DNA of 33,380 bases, taken from NCBI RefSeq assembly GCF_021531475.1, contig NZ_JADYTX010000024.1, positions 1-33,380 on the forward strand. Reading direction: 5' to 3'. This DNA comes from Fusobacterium perfoetens (lineage in GTDB: Bacteria; Fusobacteriota; Fusobacteriia; Fusobacteriales; Fusobacteriaceae). How positions within the stretch are numbered: the first letter of the stretch is position 1; each line of letters begins with the position of its first letter. Both the position numbers and the translations under genes were made by a program. The notes beneath the pieces were generated by a model, which made no database searches, was not told where the DNA came from, and worked only from the letters and a program-made list of their open reading frames with translations. Positions 29 to 27,549 of the stretch are shown piece by piece.

Positions 29-141
29 GATATTTTTTTAATTTTATTAAATTTTAAAACTTTTCTTTATTTTTCAATAGATAAAATTTTAAAAATATTT
101 TTATAATTTTTAATTTTTGAGAAAATTTTATAAAAAAATAA

Positions 142-446
142 AAGACTGTTGCATTTTTTATTAAAAAAAATATAGATTAAAATTATGAAAAAATAAAACC
201 AACAAAGATAAATGCTATAAAAAAATTTAAGAATTACATAATTTATTAAAAAAATTAAAACGTCAAGAATTTATATATCTAAAATAATACTACCTCAACG
301 GAATAAATTTATCATTTTTAGTAAAATAAATTTTAGTTAATAATTTTCTAGAAGTATTAAGTAATTCTAAATTTTTTAAATTAAATCAAATTTATAAAAT
401 ATGAAGTGATTTTTAATCTTATATTTCTTAAGTTTACAACAGCCTT
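142..446. repeat. Degenerate copy of the CTGTTGCA palindromic repeat family; fills the gene-free left end
   Basis: The ends match the better copies at 22418 and 27321: a left end with CTGTTGCA (146-153) followed by a TATAGATTAAAA-type segment, and a right end with TTTTTAATCTTATATTTCTTA followed by ACAACAGCC. The middle (about 190-400) is A/T-rich and no longer matches the conserved core of the family. I see no coding capacity in 1-459. The right end lies 14 bases from the 3' end of the ldh-like gene, so the inverted ends could help terminate its transcript. Identification is by eye. Confidence 0.55.
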
Positions 447-7278: not shown

Positions 7279-7283
7279 TTAAA

Positions 7284-7480
7284 AAAAATATAAGATTAAA
7301 AATTACTACAGATTACGAAAAATTGATTTATTATAAGCTCATTTCACTAAAATCACAAAACTCGCTAACGCTCAAACAGTTGTGATTTTTAGCGTTCAAT
7401 ATCGCTTTATAAATCTAATTTTTCTCCATAATTTTCGTAATTTTTAATCTATATTCTTATTAATAAAAAATGCAACATCT
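7284..7480. repeat. Palindromic repeat copy 2, left end missing
   Basis: About 195 bases that align by eye along their whole length with the copies at 22418 and 27321. The conserved core (7348-7400) holds the inverted arms AATCACAAAACTCGCT and its partner ending in GTTGTGATTT. The right terminal TGCAACA is at 7471-7477; the left CTGTTGCA end is absent, replaced by the A-rich run after the 7000-7278 gene. The element folds as one long imperfect hairpin. It separates two converging genes (7278 plus, 7493 minus) and could terminate both. Confidence 0.75.
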
Positions 7481-7492
7481 CTCTTTTTATTT

Positions 7493-9004
7493 TTAATTTT
7501 TTTCAGTTCTTTTAATATAATTTAAAATCTCTGATATTGTCATATCCACTATCGCAATAATTTTTTCTCTAAATAAATTAACTATATTTCTTATAGATTG
7601 AGATAAATTAATAGCATTTTCTTCTTTCTCTACTCCTAAATTTCTGAAGAAATATATTGTCATAACTCCGATAACTGTTCCTGCTATAATATCTGAAAGA
7701 GGAGAGGCAAATAAAATTCCATATATCCCTCTTCCTACCTCTTTATTTTCAAAAAATCTACAAAGTCCCAAAGTAAATATTACAAAGCAAAACATATCTC
7801 TAAGGATAGAGGCTATCATTGAGTGAATAGGTTTTCCAATAGATTGGAAGAATATAGATGAAATCTTTATAAAGCAAGTTACAAAGCAAAAACTTAAGAA
7901 AATACGGAAACTTTTTGTTGCAAAATCCATATAAAGTTCATTTTGTTTTCCAAAAATTAAAATTATCATCTCTGGATATAGTTCAAATATCAAAGTGGAT
8001 AAAATCCCAACTCCAAGAGATGAGATTAAAATAAAACGATAAGTTTCTTTTACTCTATCTAATTTCTTAGCTCCATAGTTATAACCTAAAATCGGTTGTC
8101 CACCTAAAGCTATTCCAACAGCGATATTATTTACAATAGTATAAACCTTTGTCTGAATGCTAAAAACAGAGATTGGAATATCGCTACCATAGATAGAAGT
8201 AGCTCCATATTTTGCCAAAGTAATATTACTAAGTAGCGTCATAACTACCATTGAAATCTGAATAATAAAAGTAGAACCACCTAGCATAATAAGATTTTTT
8301 AGCATATCTTTTTTTATGTGGAAACTCTCTTTGGAAAGTTTAAAACTTTTTGGTTTTAAAAAATATAATCCACAAATAATAAAAGATACCCCTTGTCCAA
8401 TCACTGTGGCTATTGCTGCTCCCTCAATCCCCCAATCTAACCAAAATATACAGATAGGGTCTAGAATAATATTTAAAATAGCTCCCGAACACATTGCCAT
8501 CATAGCATAAGTTGGACTTCCGTCAGCTCTTATCATACTGTTCATCACATTAAACATCAGATATGCTGGAAAAAATAAAGCTATAATTTCAAAATAATTG
8601 CAAGCTAAATCAAGAGTAGCCTCTGACGCACCAAATAAAATCATTAAAGGCTCACAAAATAAAATACAAACTCCCGAAAGAATAACACTTATTATAAAAG
8701 TAGTTGTAAGTCCCGTCCCAACACATCTGTGAGCACTTTCACTGTCTTGACGTCCAGAACAGATACTTAAATAAGAGGCTGCTCCATCTCCAACACACCA
8801 AGCAAAAGCATTACAAATACAAATAATGGGAAAAGATATTCCTGTGGCAGCGTTTCCCAAATAACCAAGCTCACTATTTCCAATAAAGATTTGGTCTACA
8901 ATGTTGTAGAGTGCACTTATCAGAAGTCCCATAACACAAGGTACAGAGAATTTTAAAAGCAGTTGAGATACTGGCTTTTCTCCTAAAATTTTGTTTTCTT
9001 CCAT
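7493..9004 (-). CDS. MATE-family efflux transporter
   Basis: 503 residues, a polytopic membrane protein with about 12 transmembrane segments arranged as two halves, the hallmark of MATE sodium- or proton-coupled exporters (NorM/DinF/MepA-like). The start LGEKPVSQLLLKFSVPCVMGLLISALYNIVD-type N-terminus with the NxVDQIFIG segment near 35-42 and the second-half LGYNYGAKK (near 305) are typical MATE signatures. The C-terminal 40 residues form a hydrophilic/amphipathic tail. Start ATG has AAGGAGG about 11 nt upstream. Its leader carries a purine riboswitch, which suggests the substrate or its physiology is linked to purines; this is inference, not a substrate assignment. Confidence 0.9.
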   Translation of the reverse strand: MEENKILGEKPVSQLLLKFSVPCVMGLLISALYNIVDQIFIGNSELGYLGNAATGISFPIICICNAFAWCVGDGAASYLSICSGRQDSESAHRCVGTGLTTTFIISVILSGVCILFCEPLMILFGASEATLDLACNYFEIIALFFPAYLMFNVMNSMIRADGSPTYAMMAMCSGAILNIILDPICIFWLDWGIEGAAIATVIGQGVSFIICGLYFLKPKSFKLSKESFHIKKDMLKNLIMLGGSTFIIQISMVVMTLLSNITLAKYGATSIYGSDIPISVFSIQTKVYTIVNNIAVGIALGGQPILGYNYGAKKLDRVKETYRFILISSLGVGILSTLIFELYPEMIILIFGKQNELYMDFATKSFRIFLSFCFVTCFIKISSIFFQSIGKPIHSMIASILRDMFCFVIFTLGLCRFFENKEVGRGIYGILFASPLSDIIAGTVIGVMTIYFFRNLGVEKEENAINLSQSIRNIVNLFREKIIAIVDMTISEILNYIKRTEKN

Positions 9005-9025: not shown

Positions 9026-9060
9026 AGCACAAAAACCGTAAACAATTTACTTTTGTGCAT
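9026..9060 (-). promoter_or_regulatory. Riboswitch expression platform hairpin
   Basis: After the aptamer the leader can form a long hairpin, GCACAAAA-GTAAA-TTG-TTTAC-GG-TTTTTGTGC. There is no proper U-tract after it and the ribosome binding site (9015-9021) lies 5 bases outside it. The segment 9036-9051 can instead pair with aptamer bases 9076-9091, so the two folds exclude each other. Confidence 0.55.
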
Positions 9061-9068
9061 TTTTTAAT

Positions 9069-9133
9069 GCCTTATAGTAAACTATTTACGGTAGTCTGTA
9101 GAAACGTCCACCCTATTGTGAACATATATAAGC
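9069..9133 (-). promoter_or_regulatory. Purine (guanine-type) riboswitch aptamer
   Basis: Minus-strand sequence shows the purine aptamer parts in order: P1 (GCTTATA with TATAAGGC), P2 GTTCAC/GTGGAC with a loop ending in GG, the invariant J2/3 GTTTCTAC (9105 to 9098), P3 AGACTA/TAGTTT closed by the canonical loop CCGTAAA, and J3/1 ACTAT. The loop-loop partners (GG in L2, CC in L3) are present. The specificity base equivalent to position 74 is C (complement of g9077), predicting guanine or a related 6-oxopurine rather than adenine. L2 looks one nucleotide shorter than in the B. subtilis xpt aptamer. Confidence 0.88.
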
Positions 9134-9145
9134 TCATTTCCTTTT

Positions 9146-9175
9146 AGAATATCATATTTTTACAGTTATTGTCAA
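9146..9175 (-). promoter_or_regulatory. Promoter of the riboswitch-MATE transcript
   Basis: Minus strand TTGACA (9175-9170), 18-nt spacer, TATTCT (9151-9146). Transcription would start near 9138, just before the aptamer P1 stem. Confidence 0.8.
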
Positions 9176-9309: not shown

Positions 9310-10658
9310 TTATCCAAAAATTCCAAATACAATAGAACCTATGATTAACATCATTGCTCCTCCAACTCTCGAAGAAATTTGTGCAAATGACATTAACTCC
9401 ATTCTGTCTGCTGCTCCAAGTACAGCCACATCTCCTGAACCACCTCTGTTTGCCATACATAGCCCAGCTGTTATCGCTGCCTCTATAGGATAAAACTTCA
9501 TTGTTCTAGAAAGTAACATTATAAATATAACTGCTCCTAATACAATTCCTATTGCTATTACTAAATTTGCTGGTGTTAAAGAATTTATAATCTCTTGTAC
9601 ATCAGTTCCAAAACCTACTGCTCCCATTAATATCCAAATAGTATATTTTGAGAAAAATGTTTGCATATTTTTAGCTCCAGCTTTTAATGGTGTTGGGACA
9701 ACATTAGTTACATTTAAAATAATTGCATAGATAACTAAAAATGCTAATCTGTGCATTTCAAAAGAAAAATTTAATGTACTCCATAATTCAGCTGAAAGAT
9801 GTGCAAACATAAATAATACTCCTGTAAAAACTAAAGCTGCTGCAAACTCTTTTTGTCCAACTTCCATTTTTACCTCTTCATCTTTAACTGCTTCTTTTGA
9901 ATTTTCTATTATTAAACTTCCATTTCCTGTTAAGCTAGGTTTTGATTTTCCTAATTTATTTAATAAAGCTCCAGTTATAATTACAATAACATTAGCTATT
10001 GTTAAGATTGAAATAGCAAAAGCAAACCATTCACTTGAAGGTCTTCCTGTTTTTTGAGCCCACATCTCAGACATAGGTATAGCTCCAGCTCCTGTTCCTC
10101 CGCCCATTATAGGTAAAACATAATTCATCACAATATCAAGAGGTGCTTTTCCAAAACATAATCCTGTTATTACTCCACCTATTGTTGCTCCTAAAACTCC
10201 TACTAAAATAAGTGGAATATATCCTGATATAGCTTGTACTAATGTTTTTCTATTAACTGTTAAAACTGAACCTACAATCAAAGCAGGTATAAATATTTCC
10301 AAGAAATTTACTGGTTGTTTCCCATAAAATATCTCTATAGAATCTAACATTTTTTGAGGTACTAAATTGTATGTTCCCATTACTGCCGAAATAAAAAATA
10401 CTAAAACTGTTCCTCCACCAATATAATCATTCCATACAGGAATTCTATCTCCAATCTCTCCAAATAAAATTCCAAACACTGCTAATATTGTAAATATTGT
10501 TAGAAAATTAGGTCTAACAAATCCTCCAACAACTCCATTGAAAGGTGTGTAAACAATAAATGTTACTATACCTAATAATACTAAAAACATAGGTAAAGTT
10601 AGTCCACTCCATTTTGCTTCTTTTAAACTGAATAATTCAGAAAAAGTTTTTTTGCCAT
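9310..10658 (-). CDS. 2-hydroxycarboxylate transporter (CitS/MaeN type), frameshifted near its start
   Basis: The body from the internal ATG at 10590 gives 426 residues of a sodium- or proton-coupled citrate/malate/lactate carrier of the 2HCT family. The two family reentrant-loop motifs are clear: GGGTGAGAIPMSE near 165 and CMANRGGSGDVAVL near 392. The VGGFVRPN, FGEIGDRIP and YIGGGTVL segments match the N-terminal half of CitS. The best ribosome binding site (AAAGGAG) precedes ATG 10658 (M-A-K-K), which lies in another frame and reaches a stop after 11 codons. One extra A, or a -1 slip, in the A7 run 10647-10653 joins the frames and adds a sensible leader (MAKKTFSELFSLKEAKWSGLTLP), giving about 449 residues, the family norm. 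Could be a real frameshift, a slippage site or a sequencing error. Confidence 0.8.
10646..10658 (-). other. A_AAA_AAA slippery run at codons 2-4 of the transporter
   Basis: On the minus strand the start codon context is ATG GCA AAA AAA CTT. In the zero frame it contains the heptamer A AAA AAA (10653-10647). A -1 slip gives ACT TTT TCT and enters the frame of the transporter body. See findings. Confidence 0.55.
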
Positions 10659-10705
10659 AATTAAATCTCCTTTGCTTTAAAAAAATATTCTTTTGTTTTT
10701 AACAG

Positions 10706-10738
10706 ATACAGTATACAGTATCTCTTTTTAAAAGTCAA
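10706..10738 (-). promoter_or_regulatory. Transporter promoter with overlapping operator-like repeat
   Basis: Minus strand TTGACT (10738-10733), 17-nt spacer, TATACT (10715-10710). A direct repeat ATACAGT-ATACAGT-AT on the plus strand (10706-10721) covers the -10 box. A repressor binding here would block the promoter; the protein is not identifiable from the window. Confidence 0.65.
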
Positions 10739-10811
10739 TAATATTTTATTCAATTCTTTTATTTTTACCAAGATAGTCTTTTAACCATAATGATTTCATT
10801 TATTTTTTTGT

Positions 10812-11338: not shown

Positions 11339-12157
11339 ATGACTGAAATAAAAGTTAATCTTAGAGAGAGTAATTTAAAAGAGGATATATTTTTGGAAAG
11401 TATCCGTACAAGTTATAGAAAAAAAATCTGGTCTAAGTTTGTGAAAGCTATAAATGATTTTAATCTGATAGAGGATGGAGATAAAATCGCCGTAGGAGTA
11501 TCTGGTGGAAAGGATAGTCTTTTACTTTGTAAACTTTTCCAAGAATTAAAAAGAGATAAAAGTAAAAATTTTGAAGTGGCTTTTATCAGTATGAATCCCG
11601 GTTTTGAGGCTATGGATATTGAGCAATTTAAGAAAAATCTTGAAATTTTAAATATCCCTTGTCATATATTTAACTCTGATGTATGGGAGATCGCTTTTCG
11701 TGAAGATCCTGAAAATCCTTGTTTTCTTTGTGCTAAGATGAGAAGAGGGGTTTTATACAACAAAGTTGAGGAGTTAGGATTTAATAAACTTGCTCTTGGA
11801 CACCACTTTGATGATATTATAGAAACAGCCCTTATAAATATGTTTTACGCTGGAACTATCAAAACAATGGTGCCAAATGTATCATCTACTAGTGGAAAAC
11901 TATCTGTAATAAGACCAATGGCATACATAAAAGAAGAGGATATTATATCTTTTACAAGAAGAAACAATATTCAAGCTATGGGTTGTGGTTGTCCTGTTGA
12001 ATCTGGAAAAACTGACTCTAAAAGAAAAGAGATAAAAAATCTTTTAAAAGACCTTGAACAAAAAAATAAAAATATAAAACAAAGTATATTTAACTCCCTA
12101 AAAAATATAAATCTTGATTTTGTTATGGGATATACTAGAGGAAATAAAAATGATTAG
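11339..12157 (+). CDS. TtcA-like PP-loop ATPase, probable tRNA thiolation enzyme
   Basis: 272 residues. The ATP pyrophosphatase PP-loop is SGGKDS at 55-60. A CxxC pair (C128, C131 in CFLCAKMRRG) and a later cysteine group (C216, C218 in GCGCP) match the Fe-S ligand layout of TtcA, which adenylates C32 of tRNA and replaces its oxygen with sulfur. LGHHFDDIIET (153-163) is the usual second nucleotide-site motif. Assignment to TtcA rather than another member of the TtcA/TilS/Ncs6 group is likely but not certain. Start ATG follows TTAGGAGG at 7 nt. Its last 8 bases overlap the next, paralogous gene. A cysteine desulfurase that could supply sulfur lies at 32050 but not in this operon. Confidence 0.85.
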   Translation: MTEIKVNLRESNLKEDIFLESIRTSYRKKIWSKFVKAINDFNLIEDGDKIAVGVSGGKDSLLLCKLFQELKRDKSKNFEVAFISMNPGFEAMDIEQFKKNLEILNIPCHIFNSDVWEIAFREDPENPCFLCAKMRRGVLYNKVEELGFNKLALGHHFDDIIETALINMFYAGTIKTMVPNVSSTSGKLSVIRPMAYIKEEDIISFTRRNNIQAMGCGCPVESGKTDSKRKEIKNLLKDLEQKNKNIKQSIFNSLKNINLDFVMGYTRGNKND

Positions 12158-13079
12158 AATAAATGATATTTTTGAACTTCATAACCTAAAAGTAGATAAC
12201 TATCTTTTTGAAGTTATGGAGGACAGTTTAAAAATTATAAACAGAAAAGAAAAATTTGAAATAAATCTTAAGTATAACAAAGAAAATGTTATCTCTACCC
12301 TAGAAACTATAAAAAAATTAACAGAGATAAAAATAGTTTTAGATAGCTTTAAGGAAAGAGAGATACTTTCGTATATAGAGAGCAAAGGTTTTAATAAACT
12401 TCTTTGGAATCCTATCGGAAAAGCTATGCACAGATTTAATATGATAGAGGCAGGGGATAGGGTAGCTGTTGGAATTTCTGGGGGAAAAGACAGTATAGTT
12501 CTTTTTAATGCCCTTGTAAGAATAAAAAAAATAGCTAATTTAGATTTTGAGATTATCCCAATCCATATCCATATGAAAGAGGATTTATCAGACCTTAGTG
12601 AGCTTACAGCTTATATCAAAAAATTTGGTTATGATTTAAAAGTTATAGAAACTAACCTTGGAAACTTAGTAAAAGAGAAAAATCCTTGTTTCCTTTGTGG
12701 AAGATTAAGACGTGGGATATTATATACTTTTATGAAAGAGAATAGTATAAATAAACTTGCCCTTGGACATCATAAAGATGATATTATAGAAACTTTCCTT
12801 TTAAATATCATCTATCAAGGGAATAGAAATATTATGAAACCAGCTTATTTTTCTGATGAGCATCAAGTAACAGTTATAAGACCACTTGCTTTTGTAGAGG
12901 AAAAAAATATAATAAGCTATTCTAAAAAACTTTCTCTTCCTATTCTTGAGACAAAATGTCCTTATGAAATGAGTGTGGATTCTAAAAGACTTAGAATAAA
13001 AAATATTATAAAAGATATTTCTCTTGAAACACCTGATGTAAGAAGTACCATTCTTAACAGTATAAATGATTTGTTTTAG
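12150..13079 (+). CDS. Second TtcA-like PP-loop ATPase with extra N-terminal domain
   Basis: 309 residues when started at ATG 12150, which has AGAGG about 9 nt upstream and overlaps the previous gene by 8 bases. Residues 1-85 are an added domain not present in its neighbour. The PP-loop SGGKDS is at 110-115, CxxC at C180/C183 (CFLCGRLRRG), LGHHKDDIIET at 205-215, and a single later cysteine C270 (TKCPYE). The two genes are clearly paralogues over the catalytic part. The overlap suggests translational coupling and perhaps a two-subunit enzyme; the division of labour is unknown. Confidence 0.83.
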   Translation: MIRINDIFELHNLKVDNYLFEVMEDSLKIINRKEKFEINLKYNKENVISTLETIKKLTEIKIVLDSFKEREILSYIESKGFNKLLWNPIGKAMHRFNMIEAGDRVAVGISGGKDSIVLFNALVRIKKIANLDFEIIPIHIHMKEDLSDLSELTAYIKKFGYDLKVIETNLGNLVKEKNPCFLCGRLRRGILYTFMKENSINKLALGHHKDDIIETFLLNIIYQGNRNIMKPAYFSDEHQVTVIRPLAFVEEKNIISYSKKLSLPILETKCPYEMSVDSKRLRIKNIIKDISLETPDVRSTILNSINDLF

Positions 13080-16333: not shown

Positions 16334-16366
16334 ATGAAATACTTTTTAACTAAGGAGTATCAATGA
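16334..16366 (+). CDS. Leader ORF overlapping the murI start
   Basis: ATG 16334 follows GAGGG at 7 nt and reads MKYFLTKEYQ before a TGA that overlaps the murI start as ATGA. It lies within the predicted murI mRNA leader. The murI ribosome binding site (AAGGAG) is inside the leader codons, so reading of the leader could control access to it. No similarity to a known leader peptide; its translation is inferred. Confidence 0.4.
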   Translation: MKYFLTKEYQ

Positions 16367-17151
16367 ATAGAAATTACAACATAGGAGTTTTTGACTCAGG
16401 TCTTGGTGGAGTTACAGTTTTAAAAGAACTTAGAAAACTTTTACCAAATGAAAATATCATATATTTTGGAGATACTAAAAATGTCCCTTATGGTGAAAAA
16501 ACAAAAGAGGAGATTCAAGCTTTATCCCATAAAATAGTGGATTTTCTAACTAAAAATAATTGTAAAGTTATAATAATAGCTTGTAATACAGCCTCTATTG
16601 CTGCTTATGAATACTTAAGAAGTGTATCTTCTGTTCCTATTATTGGAATTATAAATTCTGGTTTGGAGTCTATTAAAAAAAATACATATAAAGAGATCGG
16701 TATAATTGGAACACCTTTTACTGTAAATAGCGGAGAATATCCTAAAAGATTAAGCCTAAGAGATAAAAATCTAAAGGTTAATTCTGTTGGTTGTGATAAA
16801 CTATGTCCTATGATAGAAAAAGGGTGGCAAAATTTTGAAGATAGAGGTGAGGTTTTGGAAAGCTATCTTGATAAACTTCCAAATACCTGCGAGGCTCTAC
16901 TTTTAGCTTGTACACACTATCCTTTCATTATAGAGGATATCAAAAAGAGATTTAAGGGGAATATCTTAGACCCTAGTGAAAAATGTGCTTGTGAGGTTTA
17001 TCGTTCTTTAAAAGAGGCTAACCTTTTAAATGAACAAAAAGAAGTTGGTAAGACAGAATTTTATGTAAGCAGTGATAAAGATAGCTTTAAGAATAAGGCT
17101 CAAGAGTTTTTGGGAGCTAGTATAGATAGTGTTTTTGAGATAAATTTATAG
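16363..17151 (+). CDS. murI: Glutamate racemase
   Basis: 262 residues. It interconverts L- and D-glutamate for peptidoglycan stem peptides. The cofactor-independent two-base mechanism residues are present: the first catalytic cysteine in ACNTAS (about residue 74) and the second in LLACTHYPF (about 186), with FDSGLGG at 10-16 and FGDTKNVPYGEK at about 36-47. The start ATG follows AAGGAG at 7 nt and overlaps the stop of a short leader ORF. It ends at a strong terminator; there are no other peptidoglycan genes nearby. Confidence 0.94.
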   Translation: MNRNYNIGVFDSGLGGVTVLKELRKLLPNENIIYFGDTKNVPYGEKTKEEIQALSHKIVDFLTKNNCKVIIIACNTASIAAYEYLRSVSSVPIIGIINSGLESIKKNTYKEIGIIGTPFTVNSGEYPKRLSLRDKNLKVNSVGCDKLCPMIEKGWQNFEDRGEVLESYLDKLPNTCEALLLACTHYPFIIEDIKKRFKGNILDPSEKCACEVYRSLKEANLLNEQKEVGKTEFYVSSDKDSFKNKAQEFLGASIDSVFEINL

Positions 17152-17156
17152 TAATA

Positions 17157-17189
17157 AAAATAGAGAAAGAAAACCTTCTCTATTTTTTT
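17157..17189 (+). terminator. murI terminator
   Basis: Stem AAAATAGAGAA/TTCTCTATTTT (17157-17167 with 17176-17186) followed by Ts. Confidence 0.88.
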
Positions 17190-17251
17190 ATTCCACTATT
17201 AAAAAAATCATCAATTAAAATACTTCCATCGCAATATCTTCTCTATTTTCT

Positions 17252-17672
17252 TACCACAACTGCCACTTTTATGCCACAAATTAAAAGTTCTAAATAAAGA
17301 TAATTGCTATAATTAAGAGTTTATAAAAAATGTGTAGTAATTTTGTAGAACAGTTATTACCACATCATAACTTTATATAATTAAAATATTTATAACTAAA
17401 AAATACCCTTTGTGGTAAAAAAATTTACTTACATACAAATATATACACAGATACATATATTTATGTAGTAGTATTATTAATGATCTTATATAAAATATTA
17501 TTAAATAACAAGATTTATATACTTCTACCACAATTGAATGTAATATATTTAAATTAAAAGTTTTATAATGTGGTAACAAAAAATATAGTTTTACTACATA
17601 AGATATATTATCTTTATTTTAAATAAGTTACACAAGAAAAATTTTACTACATTTTCTACCATTGTTACTACA
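17252..17672. repeat. Array of TACYACA motifs in a gene-free region
   Basis: Nine exact TACYACA heptamers occur on both strands between murI and phoU: plus-strand copies at 17252, 17358, 17526, 17592, 17645 and 17666, minus-strand copies (TGTRGTA) at 17333, 17411, 17464 and 17569, ten positions in all, plus a GCCACA variant at 17272. Start-to-start distances are 20, 61, 25, 53, 53, 62, 43, 23, 53 and 21. Most are close to whole turns of B-DNA, and 53 occurs three times. The 17190-17700 stretch has no credible gene. What binds here is unknown. Confidence 0.6.
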
Positions 17673-17696
17673 AATCTTATAAATTTAGTTTTAAAT

Positions 17697-17727
17697 ATAA
17701 AAAGAGCCATCGAAAATATGACAGCTC
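17697..17727 (-). terminator. phoU terminator
   Basis: Minus strand GAGCTGTC/GATGGCTC stem (17727-17720 with 17711-17704) with an 8-nt loop, then T5. Confidence 0.8.
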
Positions 17728-17747
17728 CTTTAGAGAAGGGGAGAGCT

Positions 17748-18437
17748 TTAGATATCTTTTTTCTCATCTAAAAGTTCTTTTTTTCTTAGGTTTTCACCTT
17801 TTAGTATATATACCAAATCCACAACTAAATGGATAATATGGTCTGAAAATCTTTCATATTTTTTTACTAGAGATACAACTTGAAGTAACTCATTAGTTTC
17901 AGCTGGATTTCTTTTTATACATTCAGCTATTTTATCAACTATTGCTTTTGTTTCAGAGTTAATATCTTCGTCAGCTGTAACTAAAGTATAAAGTAGTTCT
18001 TCATCAGATGTAGAGAAAGAAACAATATAAGAATCAAATGTACTTTTAATTCTCATAAGGTAGTTGTACATTGCTCCCTCAAGTCTTGTATTAATTTCTG
18101 GATTTATAAGTTCAATCTCTCTCATAACTTTAAAGTTACTTTTTAGAATGTCAGCCATTCTTTCTATAAGTCTAACTCCGTCTATTATCATTATTAATGC
18201 TCTTAAGTTTTTGGCAGCTGGTTGGAATCTAGCAATACAGTTTATAGAATCTTCTTTTACTTTTACTTCAAAAGCATTTATAACATCTTCTATTACAAAG
18301 CATTCTCCATAAAGTTTTGGACTTACTTTTCCATCTTTTACAGCCTCTATATTTATTTCAAGCATTCTACTAAGATGCTTTAACATCTCTAAGTAATGTT
18401 CATTTAAACCAGTTAAGCTTTCTTGTAAATTTCTCAT
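17748..18437 (-). CDS. phoU: PhoU-domain phosphate regulator
   Basis: 229 residues, all predicted helical, in two PhoU repeats (about 15-105 and 118-210). The metal-binding E/D-rich helices typical of PhoU are visible in diverged form (for example GVRLIERMADIL at about 87-98 and KKYERFSDHIIHLV at about 197-210, which matches the conserved ExxxDH pattern). PhoU links the Pst transporter to the PhoR kinase and lowers phosphate uptake when phosphate is ample. It is the last gene of the minus-strand pst cluster but is separated from pstB by 367 bases with a repeat, which is unusual and may uncouple its expression. Start ATG follows AAAAAGGAG. Confidence 0.88.
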   Translation of the reverse strand: MRNLQESLTGLNEHYLEMLKHLSRMLEINIEAVKDGKVSPKLYGECFVIEDVINAFEVKVKEDSINCIARFQPAAKNLRALIMIIDGVRLIERMADILKSNFKVMREIELINPEINTRLEGAMYNYLMRIKSTFDSYIVSFSTSDEELLYTLVTADEDINSETKAIVDKIAECIKRNPAETNELLQVVSLVKKYERFSDHIIHLVVDLVYILKGENLRKKELLDEKKDI

Positions 18438-18485: not shown

Positions 18486-18790
18486 ATTAAAAATTACATA
18501 ATTTGGTTAAGATAAAAGAAAATTTTAAAAATTATATCTACCTATCAGTTTATATATTAAAAATTACGCAATTTATTCTATTCACCAAGTTAAAAGAAAG
18601 TATTAAGAATTATACCCACTCACCAATTTATATATTAAAAATTACGTAATTTATGGAAAAAATCTAGAGATAGCAAGTGATGTTGAACGCTAAAAAATGA
18701 CACTGTTTGAGCGTAGCGAGTTTGTCATTTTTAGTGAAACGAACTTAGCTAAATCAGATTTTTGGAATATGAAGTAATTTTTATATATAT
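18486..18790. repeat. Repeat-rich pstB-phoU gap: short tandem units and a degenerate palindromic repeat
   Basis: ATTAAAAATTAC recurs at 18486, 18556 and 18634 with partly similar sequence between, giving units of 70 and 78 bases. From about 18634 to 18790 the sequence matches the core of the palindromic repeat family: ATTTATGGA, TTGAACGCTAAAA, the arms AATGACACTGTTTGAGCG and GAGTTTGTCATTTTTAGTG, and GAAGTAATTTTTA. The CTGTTGCA ends are not preserved. No gene is visible. Confidence 0.6.
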
Positions 18791-22398: not shown

Positions 22399-22417
22399 CA
22401 CAAATAAATAAAATAAT

Positions 22418-22644
22418 AAAACTGAGGCTGTTGCAAATTTAAGGAATATAAGATTAAAAATTATTACAGATTCCGAAAAATTGATTTATTTAAAGCTCAC
22501 TCCATTAAAATCATAAAACTCGCTACGCTCAAACAGTTGTGATTTTTAGCATTACGTGTCACTTTATAAATCTAATTTTTCTCCATAATTTCATAATTTT
22601 TAATCTATATTCTCACTTATAAAAAATGCAACAGCCCCAGTTTT
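22418..22644. repeat. Palindromic repeat copy 4, complete with terminal inverted repeats
   Basis: 227 bases bounded by an 18-base inverted repeat: AAAACTGAGGCTGTTGCA (22418-22435) and, on the opposite strand at the other end (22644-22627), the same sequence with one G for A. Inside, the two arms match imperfectly over most of their length, and the centre holds ATCATAAAACTCGC and CAAACAGTTGTGATTTTTAG as inner arms. No ORF. It separates pstS from the response regulator gene, and its right end is followed by TTTT, so it can act as a terminator for pstS. Confidence 0.85.
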
Positions 22645-27320: not shown

Positions 27321-27536
27321 AAAAGCTGTTGCATTCTCATTAAAAGAATATAAATTAAAAATTACGGAAATTATGGAGAAAAATTATATTTATAAAGCAC
27401 ATTGAACGCTAAAAATCACAACTGTTTGGACGAAGTGAGTTTTGTGATTTTAGTGAGATGAGCTTTTAATAAATCAATTTTTCGTAATCTGTAGTAATTT
27501 TTAATCTTATATTTCTTAACTTAGCAACAGCTCCCT
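27321..27536. repeat. Palindromic repeat copy 5, in reverse orientation to copy 4
   Basis: About 215 bases with terminal AAAAGCTGTTGCA (27321-27333) and, inverted, AGCAACAGCT (27523-27532). The reverse complement of copy 4 aligns along its length, including TTGAACGCTAAAAATCACAA, the inner partner TTTTGTGATTTTAGTGA, and TTTTTAATCTTATATTTCTT. It follows the 3' end of the patB-like gene and precedes the GH13 promoter region. The rest of 27149-27549 is A/T-rich with no gene seen. Confidence 0.85.
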
Positions 27537-27549
27537 TTTAATCTAAATT

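What the first reader, a model, noticed from the sequence alone, without database searches (positions are those of the whole stretch)
17252..17672. Helically phased array of TACYACA motifs in a 600-base gene-free region
Ten exact TACYACA/TGTRGTA heptamers and one near match occur within 421 bases between two converging, terminated genes, where no promoter is needed. Spacings of 53, 53, 53, 21, 20, 23 and 61-62 are near whole turns of DNA, as for a protein binding repeatedly on one face. Such arrays are known for partition sites, replication or terminus control sites and iterons, but this motif is not the DnaA box (TTATCCACA), ParB parS or a Tus-type site I know.
Basis: partly seen in the sequence, partly recalled or inferred. 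Interest (0 to 1): 0.62.

Follow-up and report, generated by a model that had tools for sequence, protein, structure and literature searches.

The report
Orphan origin-like repeat array in Fusobacterium
A gene-free stretch of a Fusobacterium chromosome carries ten copies of a short DNA word that looks like a protein landing strip; similar strips in viruses that infect bacteria lie beside a DNA-copying enzyme, so this one may be a replication start site of a mobile element that has lost its own enzyme gene.

Summary
The array is real. The 596-base murI-phoU gap holds ten exact TACYACA sites; shuffles of it give a mean of 0.25 and at most 4 in 20,000. In 467 kb of the same genome the densest other 421-base stretch holds 2. 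The sites share no flanking homology and near-misses are not in excess, so they look like binding sites, not duplications. 10.6-bp phasing is modest (p about 0.009).

It is not an oriC, terminus or canonical parS: Fusobacteriaceae lack DnaA domain IV (0 of 37), the probable origin lies elsewhere, and leading-strand bias does not switch at the array. None of six same-genus genomes has it.

In viral contigs, non-coding TACYACA arrays recur: 32 of 53 loci against 2 of 47 for one control motif. In 23 of 39 mixed-orientation arrays a VapE-type primase-helicase gene lies next to it, array always on the gene's 3' side, the reported SaPI origin layout (PMC7581432). Best reading: an orphan phage- or satellite-type origin (about 0.4). 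No helicase gene was found nearby. By-product: a plasmid-type Rep occupies the dnaA position across Fusobacteriaceae.

The parts
17152..17747 (.). gene-free AT-rich gap between convergent murI and phoU that holds the array
   Evidence: 596 bp, GC 0.21; longest ORF 68 aa
17252..17258 (+). site 1 TACCACA
17333..17339 (-). site 2 TACTACA
17358..17364 (+). site 3 TACCACA
17411..17417 (-). site 4 TACCACA
17464..17470 (-). site 5 TACTACA
17526..17532 (+). site 6 TACCACA
17569..17575 (-). site 7 TACCACA
17592..17598 (+). site 8 TACTACA
17645..17651 (+). site 9 TACTACA
17666..17672 (+). site 10 TACTACA
17471..17525 (.). site-free stretch with the most AT-rich block inside the array, candidate unwinding region (inference only)
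   Evidence: 40-base block 17480-17519 is 90% A+T, the highest of 14 blocks read
16363..17151 (+). murI, glutamate racemase (left neighbour)
   Evidence: TIGR00067 E=1e-58
17156..17187 (+). inverted repeat followed by T run, murI terminator-like
   Evidence: 12-nt perfect arms 17156-17167 and 17176-17187
17700..17731 (-). terminator-like hairpin of phoU
17748..18437 (-). phoU (right neighbour), followed by pstB, pstA and pstC
   Evidence: TIGR02135 E=1e-31, below that model's curated cut-off

Best explanation
The array is a set of about ten binding sites (extended consensus TNYTACYACA) for one sequence-specific DNA-binding protein. Its architecture is that of a mobile-element replication origin: a phage or satellite primase-helicase of the VapE/SF3 kind would bind the short repeats in both orientations through its C-terminal domain, assemble as hexamers, open the AT-rich DNA between the sites and start replication. 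In this chromosome the array stands alone, so it is most likely the origin left behind by such an element, or an origin served in trans by a helicase encoded elsewhere. Shown: the sites, their improbability, their uniqueness in the DNA examined, and the recurrence of TACYACA arrays on the 3' side of VapE genes in viral contigs. Inferred: that a helicase of that kind binds this array, that it fires or once fired, and that an element was lost.
For: Statistics of the array. Independent exact sites: flank identity 0.36 against 0.33 expected, and no excess of one-mismatch sites, which argues against duplication and against long decay. In IMG/VR, loci found by a mixed-orientation TTACYACA triple hold at least 5 non-coding sites per 421 bp in 32 of 53 cases, up to 12; a control 8-mer of equal G+C content gave 2 of 47, both from one contig. 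Of 39 loci with mixed-orientation arrays, 23 have one protein family within 6 kb (median 48 bp), with the array on the 3' side of the gene in all 23. By hmmscan 11 of the 13 members scanned carry PF05272 VapE-like, and the other two carry BT4734-like_N plus PriCT_2 primase domains. In the control loci 1 of 47 has a family member. The 17 distinct members used are diverse (median pairwise identity 23%). Among 16 named or fecal VapE records chosen without regard to the motif, one (Prevotella nigrescens, L591) has 5 TACYACA sites in both orientations directly on the 3' side of VapE, and the Flavobacterium phage lotta8-2 has 9 copies of another word (TGTTCC) there. PMC7581432 (passages) reports that SaPI Rep binds, through its C-terminal domain, an origin of short iterons directly downstream of its gene.
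Against: No helicase gene lies in the window, and none was found with my profile in 467 kb of this genome or in 2.17 Mb of Fusobacteriaceae-side loci held, overlaps and some order relatives included; about 1.5 Mb of this genome could not be checked. The extended motif differs: viral arrays prefer C at -2 and are mostly uniform T or C at the variable position, whereas here -3 is T and the variable position is 5 C/5 T. Spacings here (21-81 bp) are wider than in most viral arrays. 16 of 39 viral arrays have no family member; at least some of those are of another kind. Searches for AT-flanked arrays in viral contigs found none: 0 of 43 loci with 5 or more non-coding sites, and two loci already seen. 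15 of the 16 motif-blind VapE records lack TACYACA arrays. A relic should be decaying, yet near-misses are not in excess.
Confidence: 0.4

Rival explanations
1. A species-specific chromosomal nucleoprotein site: a host DNA-binding protein (nucleoid-associated, segregation or titration factor) occupies the array. It works like datA-, crtS- or plasmid-centromere-type sites, and the motif or the locus turns over quickly between species.
For: Exact, apparently maintained sites; modest one-face phasing at 10.6 bp; a gap between convergent genes where no promoter is needed; the Fusobacteriaceae have an unusual replication system and few strong ParB matches, so unknown chromosome-maintenance sites are conceivable.
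Against: Absent from all 6 other genomes of the genus held; no second array in the own DNA searched; the motif is not enriched or depleted genome-wide (TTACYACA 214 against 235 for the reversed control); murI and phoU are not adjacent in relatives, so the site sits at a rearranged junction.
Confidence: 0.3
2. Operator array of an unrecognised gene, small RNA or mobile-element remnant in the gap, where the sites regulate transcription.
For: Small ORFs of 22-68 aa exist in the gap; among the viral arrays without the helicase, some lie next to a small protein with a weak resolvase-type HTH match (L489 group), so TACYACA can have other owners.
Against: Promoter-like matches in the region are below the shuffle mean (3 against 6.1); no Rfam match in the gap; both flanking genes converge on it.
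Confidence: 0.12
3. A chromosomal replication origin, terminus or DnaA-box cluster of this species.
For: DnaA-like arrangement: short sites in both orientations in AT-rich non-coding DNA; some likeness to DnaA-box sequences (recalled, not from a call).
Against: No DnaA domain IV in the genome or in 37 of 37 family members. A plasmid-type Rep gene with six upstream iterons lies elsewhere (C34), and in the complete relative G011 the GC skew flips at that locus. In the window third-position GC skew is higher on the minus strand on both sides of the array (left 0.20 against 0.00; right 0.06 against -0.10), so no fork switch is seen; these differences are small.
Confidence: 0.03
4. Chance in AT-rich DNA.
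For: The gap is AT-rich and the word is short.
Against: Maximum 4 in 20,000 dinucleotide shuffles of the gap itself against 10 observed; best of 130 own gaps even with free choice of heptamer; any heptamer with two fixed G/C reaches at most 6 in 400 shuffles.
Confidence: 0.02

Closest known systems
SaPI rep-ori and related satellite or SCCmec origins (Rep, Cch2)
   Same: Many short repeats in AT-rich non-coding DNA; PMC7581432 (passages) describes the origin directly downstream of the helicase gene and bound by the helicase's C-terminal domain; the viral TACYACA arrays found here have that place relative to VapE genes.
   Different: The window array has no adjacent helicase, primase, integrase or satellite genes; its motif is TACYACA; binding is untested.
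P4 alpha protein origin (ori1/crr)
   Same: Octamer-like repeats in both orientations read by a primase-helicase (recalled, not from a call).
   Different: Different repeat word; P4 carries the alpha gene itself (recalled).
VapE-type phage arrays found here (for example L477, L441, L470, L404) and Prevotella nigrescens NZ_CP072340 (L591)
   Same: Core word TACYACA, both orientations, non-coding, 5-12 sites.
   Different: They sit on the 3' side of the helicase gene; most are tighter and many carry C at -2.
Fusobacteriaceae chromosomal Rep iteron origin
   Same: Iteron array in AT-rich DNA of the same genome (L140).
   Different: A bipartite 17-mer ATTAWTGANNATAWACA, all copies in one orientation and about 104 bp apart, directly upstream of rep; none of the window array sites is such an iteron, and the best window match is weak (12.2 bits at 17473).
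DnaA-box oriC
   Same: Clustered short sites in both orientations.
   Different: No DnaA domain IV in this genome or family.

Membership tests
Phage/satellite primase-helicase (VapE/SF3) iteron origin | Cluster of short repeats, both orientations, in non-coding AT-rich DNA | tested here: met
   10 sites, 6 in plus and 4 in minus orientation, GC 0.21, no gene
Phage/satellite primase-helicase (VapE/SF3) iteron origin | Same repeat word as arrays of that kind | tested here: met
   Core TACYACA shared with 23 viral arrays that were selected by that word and with L591, which was not; flanking preferences differ
Phage/satellite primase-helicase (VapE/SF3) iteron origin | Helicase gene directly 5' of the array, or somewhere in the genome | tested here: inconclusive
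Phage/satellite primase-helicase (VapE/SF3) iteron origin | Autonomous replication when the initiator is supplied | not testable with these tools
   needs a bench test
DnaA-dependent oriC | DnaA with a box-binding domain IV in the genome | tested here: not met
   PF08299: 0 of 37 family genomes against 24 of 24 of the other families of the order; the TIGR00362 search found only a 49-bit match below the cut-off, on a 257-aa ATPase ORF that I read as DnaC-like
Replication origin or terminus | Switch of leading-strand skew at the site | tested here: not met
   Third-position GC skew higher on the minus strand on both sides; small differences
Fusobacteriaceae Rep iteron origin | 17-bp bipartite iterons about 104 bp apart upstream of rep | tested here: not met
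ParB-parS partition site | Chromosomal ParB | tested here: not met
   Own best TIGR00180 score 28.8 bits (cut-off 58.45); best of 23 Fusobacteriaceae searched 66 bits, against 181-195 in three genomes of other families

The most novel reading that the evidence does not exclude
The array is a stand-alone, maintained copy of a mobile element's origin: either a decoy that titrates the primase-helicase of an incoming phage or satellite (a passive chromosomal anti-phage device), or an origin-only parasite that replicates with a helicase supplied in trans. This would explain exact sites with no excess of decayed copies, no resident helicase gene in the DNA seen, and absence from sister species.
Probability: 0.07. 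Interest if true: 0.75.

Novelty: new variant of a known kind. Interest (0 to 1): 0.45.

Why it matters
If right, the simple motif TACYACA in dense mixed-orientation arrays is a way to find origins of VapE-type phages and satellites, and orphan arrays in chromosomes mark lost elements or decoys. The test also brought out that the Fusobacteriaceae lack DnaA domain IV and carry a plasmid-type Rep with regularly spaced iterons at the dnaA position, which would make chromosome initiation in this family directly testable.

Tried and rejected
DnaA-box oriC: rejected. Array as the Fusobacteriaceae Rep origin: rejected, different motif and place. Terminus or origin by skew: rejected. parS: rejected. 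BlaI/MecI-type dyads (half-site TACTACA, recalled): considered and rejected by eye, because the opposed pairs found here lie 16-18 bp apart and face outwards. Symmetric inverted repeats around the array: at first suggestive (7283-7366 and 27434-27517), rejected because they belong to a dispersed intergenic repeat family. DNA homologs of the gap: only short, AT-rich matches. Literature for the motif string: 18 papers listed, by their titles on other subjects and none on bacterial replication (search listing only). AT-rich viral arrays: none. Two iteron scripts failed through wrong regular expressions and were corrected; one summary script failed half-way and was completed. Only one control motif was used for the viral scan; it has equal G+C content (one T replaced by A) and is not an exact permutation.

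Full report
The window is contig C24 of a 2.02-Mb draft genome in 92 contigs from the Fusobacteriaceae; the nearest named relatives found are Fusobacterium sp. MAGs and F. gastrosuis. The finding lies between murI (16363-17151, +) and phoU (17748-18437, -). Both genes end in terminator-like repeats. The 596-bp gap has GC 0.21 and no ORF above 68 aa.

Observation. All ten exact TACYACA sites are there. Dinucleotide shuffles of the gap itself give a mean of 0.25 and never more than 4 in 20,000. In 467,494 bases of the same genome 122 other sites occur; the densest other 421-bp stretch has 2. Among 130 own intergenic gaps of 200-1500 bp, scored for any one-degenerate heptamer with two fixed G/C, this gap is first with 10 and the next has 6. 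The 8-mer TTACYACA is not over-represented genome-wide: 214 against 235 for its reversed control. Full spacings are 81, 25, 53, 53, 62, 43, 23, 53 and 21; the best phase is 10.6 bp, R=0.755, p about 0.009 after choosing among seven periods.

Nature of the sites. Aligned with flanks, the sites extend to TNYTACYACA (T at -3 in 9 of 10, T or C at -1 in 10 of 10). Flank identity is 0.36 against 0.33 expected, so the copies did not arise by recent duplication. One-mismatch sites in the gap number 4 against 3.1 expected from the rest of the window, so there is no tail of decayed copies. I read this as binding sites under selection or of recent origin; that is inference.

Conservation. None of the six other genomes of the genus shows the array: same-strand pairs there are isolated, opposed pairs likewise, and murI and phoU are not neighbours there; in the closest relative G003 murI follows feoB as here, but its contig ends about 320 bp beyond murI, without the array. 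Both opposed pairs found in the own genome lie in the array. Blast of the gap against 37 genomes, plasmids and phages gave only short AT-rich matches.

Is it a host origin, terminus or partition site? PF08299 (DnaA domain IV) is absent from 37 of 37 Fusobacteriaceae genomes and present in 24 of 24 genomes of three other families of the order; TIGR00362 in the own genome gives only a 49-bit match on a 257-aa ATPase ORF that looks DnaC-like to me. At the dnaA position (rnpA side, and in several genera next to recF-gyrB-gyrA) a gene for a protein of about 600 aa is found, homologous in 35 of 37 Fusobacteriaceae and in 1 of 24 others; two of four members scanned match PF10134 'Replication initiator protein A' (E=1e-6 and 1e-7), the own copy and one other do not at E 0.1, but the own copy and the G030 copy used as query are 62% identical. 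Upstream of it in 7 of 7 genus genomes lie copies of a 17-mer ATTAWTGANNATAWACA in one orientation, mostly about 104 bp apart (4-6 per genome at 8 bits or more; own: -597, -493, -389, -284, -141, -49). The matrix trained on these finds at least two copies (10 bits or more) in 18 of 19 rep-upstream gaps of other genera (the exception is a 156-bp gap), and only 1 hit of 15 bits or more in 447 kb of other own DNA. In the complete chromosome G011 the GC skew flips from -0.244 to +0.224 between the two 19-kb blocks that adjoin this locus. So the probable origin is there and not in the window. In the window, third-position GC skew is higher on the minus strand on both sides of the array (left 0.20 against 0.00; right 0.06 against -0.10), so no fork switch is seen. 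ParB scores in 23 Fusobacteriaceae genomes are weak or plasmid-like (best 66 bits; own 28.8; three genomes of other families 181-195).

Where else do such arrays occur? A scan of IMG/VR for TTACYACA-TGTRGTAA-TTACYACA triples gave 53 loci; 32 of them have at least 5 non-coding TACYACA in 421 bp. A control 8-mer of equal G+C content gave 47 loci, of which 2 (same contig) pass that test. Together with a first, truncated scan there are 39 loci with non-coding mixed-orientation arrays of 5-12 sites. Clustering ORFs within 6 kb gives one dominant family: 23 of 39 loci, median distance 48 bp, with the array on the gene's 3' side in 23 of 23. hmmscan of 13 members: 11 carry PF05272 VapE-like, and the other two carry BT4734-like_N plus PriCT_2; PHROGs call the three of them scanned DNA primase or helicase. 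One member matches solved structure 7pds, 'Similar to D. nodosus vapE'. The 17 distinct C-terminal regions have a median identity of 23%, so this is not one phage; near-duplicate loci exist within the 23. In the control loci 1 of 47 has a family member, and there the control word (3 non-coding copies) lies next to it. Of the 16 other array loci, at least two (L456, L462) lie at the end of a gene that looks to me like another primase-helicase (by eye), and some look different.

Motif-blind check: of 16 VapE records fetched by protein similarity (12 measured, 4 fecal records), one, Prevotella nigrescens L591, has 5 TACYACA sites (4 minus, 1 plus) within 93 bp at the 3' end of VapE; the Flavobacterium phage lotta8-2 has 9 TGTTCC-type sites there, against at most 5 in 200 shuffles. 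So 3' repeat arrays occur with various words, and TACYACA is one of them. PMC7581432 (passages read) states that SaPI Rep recognises, by its C-terminal domain, an origin of short repeats directly downstream of the helicase gene, and shows this layout for SCCmec Cch2.

Conclusion. The window array works most plausibly like such an origin, but membership is incomplete: no helicase gene is adjacent, none was found in the quarter of the genome that I could scan, flanking preferences differ from the viral arrays, and AT-rich viral counterparts were not found. I put 0.4 on the orphan phage/satellite origin, 0.3 on a fast-evolving host site, 0.12 on operators, and little on oriC/terminus or chance.

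Literature. Searches (search listings) showed no paper that reports DnaA loss in Fusobacteriaceae; PMC1924603 (passages) places the F. [quoted passage not shown]

Noticed in passing
L140:449-2293 (-) with iterons at L140:2322-2891; same layout in L097, L099, L101, L104-L107, L141-L147, L149, L152-L157, L159: Fusobacteriaceae genomes lack DnaA domain IV (0 of 37) and carry at the dnaA position a conserved plasmid-type initiator (PF10134-like, 35 of 37) preceded by same-orientation 17-bp iterons about 104-117 bp apart; GC skew flips at this locus in the complete genome G011. Looks like replacement of DnaA by a plasmid initiator in a whole bacterial family.
   Followed up: partly
L140:6913-6940, 10645-10767 and 337-358; palindrome also in L142, L143, L145: Further Rep-type iterons lie within about 12 kb of the origin, one a palindrome in the mnmE-mnmG gap that recurs in G002, G003 and G005; only 1 hit of 15 bits or more in 447 kb elsewhere. 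Possible titration or operator sites.
   Followed up: no
window 122-445, 7283-7458, 18629-18746, 22416-22634, 27344-27542: A dispersed intergenic palindromic repeat family (arms 71-100% complementary between copies), at least five places in 33 kb; may explain local rearrangement of the pst block relative to G003.
   Followed up: no
L535:6055-7069: Even the control-motif scan hit a VapE-family gene with three non-coding copies of the control word on its 3' side: 3' repeats at VapE genes may be common and their word varies.
   Followed up: no
L540:3724-4060; L596:2484-2800; L595:2502-2930: VapE genes of a Flavobacterium phage, a Limosilactobacillus plasmid and a Salmonella 9.3-kb plasmid have 3' clusters of TGTTCC (9), GTTACC (7) and TGACACC (6) words respectively; the last only equals its shuffle maximum of 6.
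   Followed up: partly
window 11339-13079: Two consecutive TtcA-like genes, overlapping as listed (272 and 321 aa), both matching tRNA 2-thiocytidine synthetase TtcA below its cut-off.
   Followed up: no
window 9055-9151 (-): Purine riboswitch aptamer just upstream of, and on the same strand as, the MatE gene 7493-9004.
   Followed up: no
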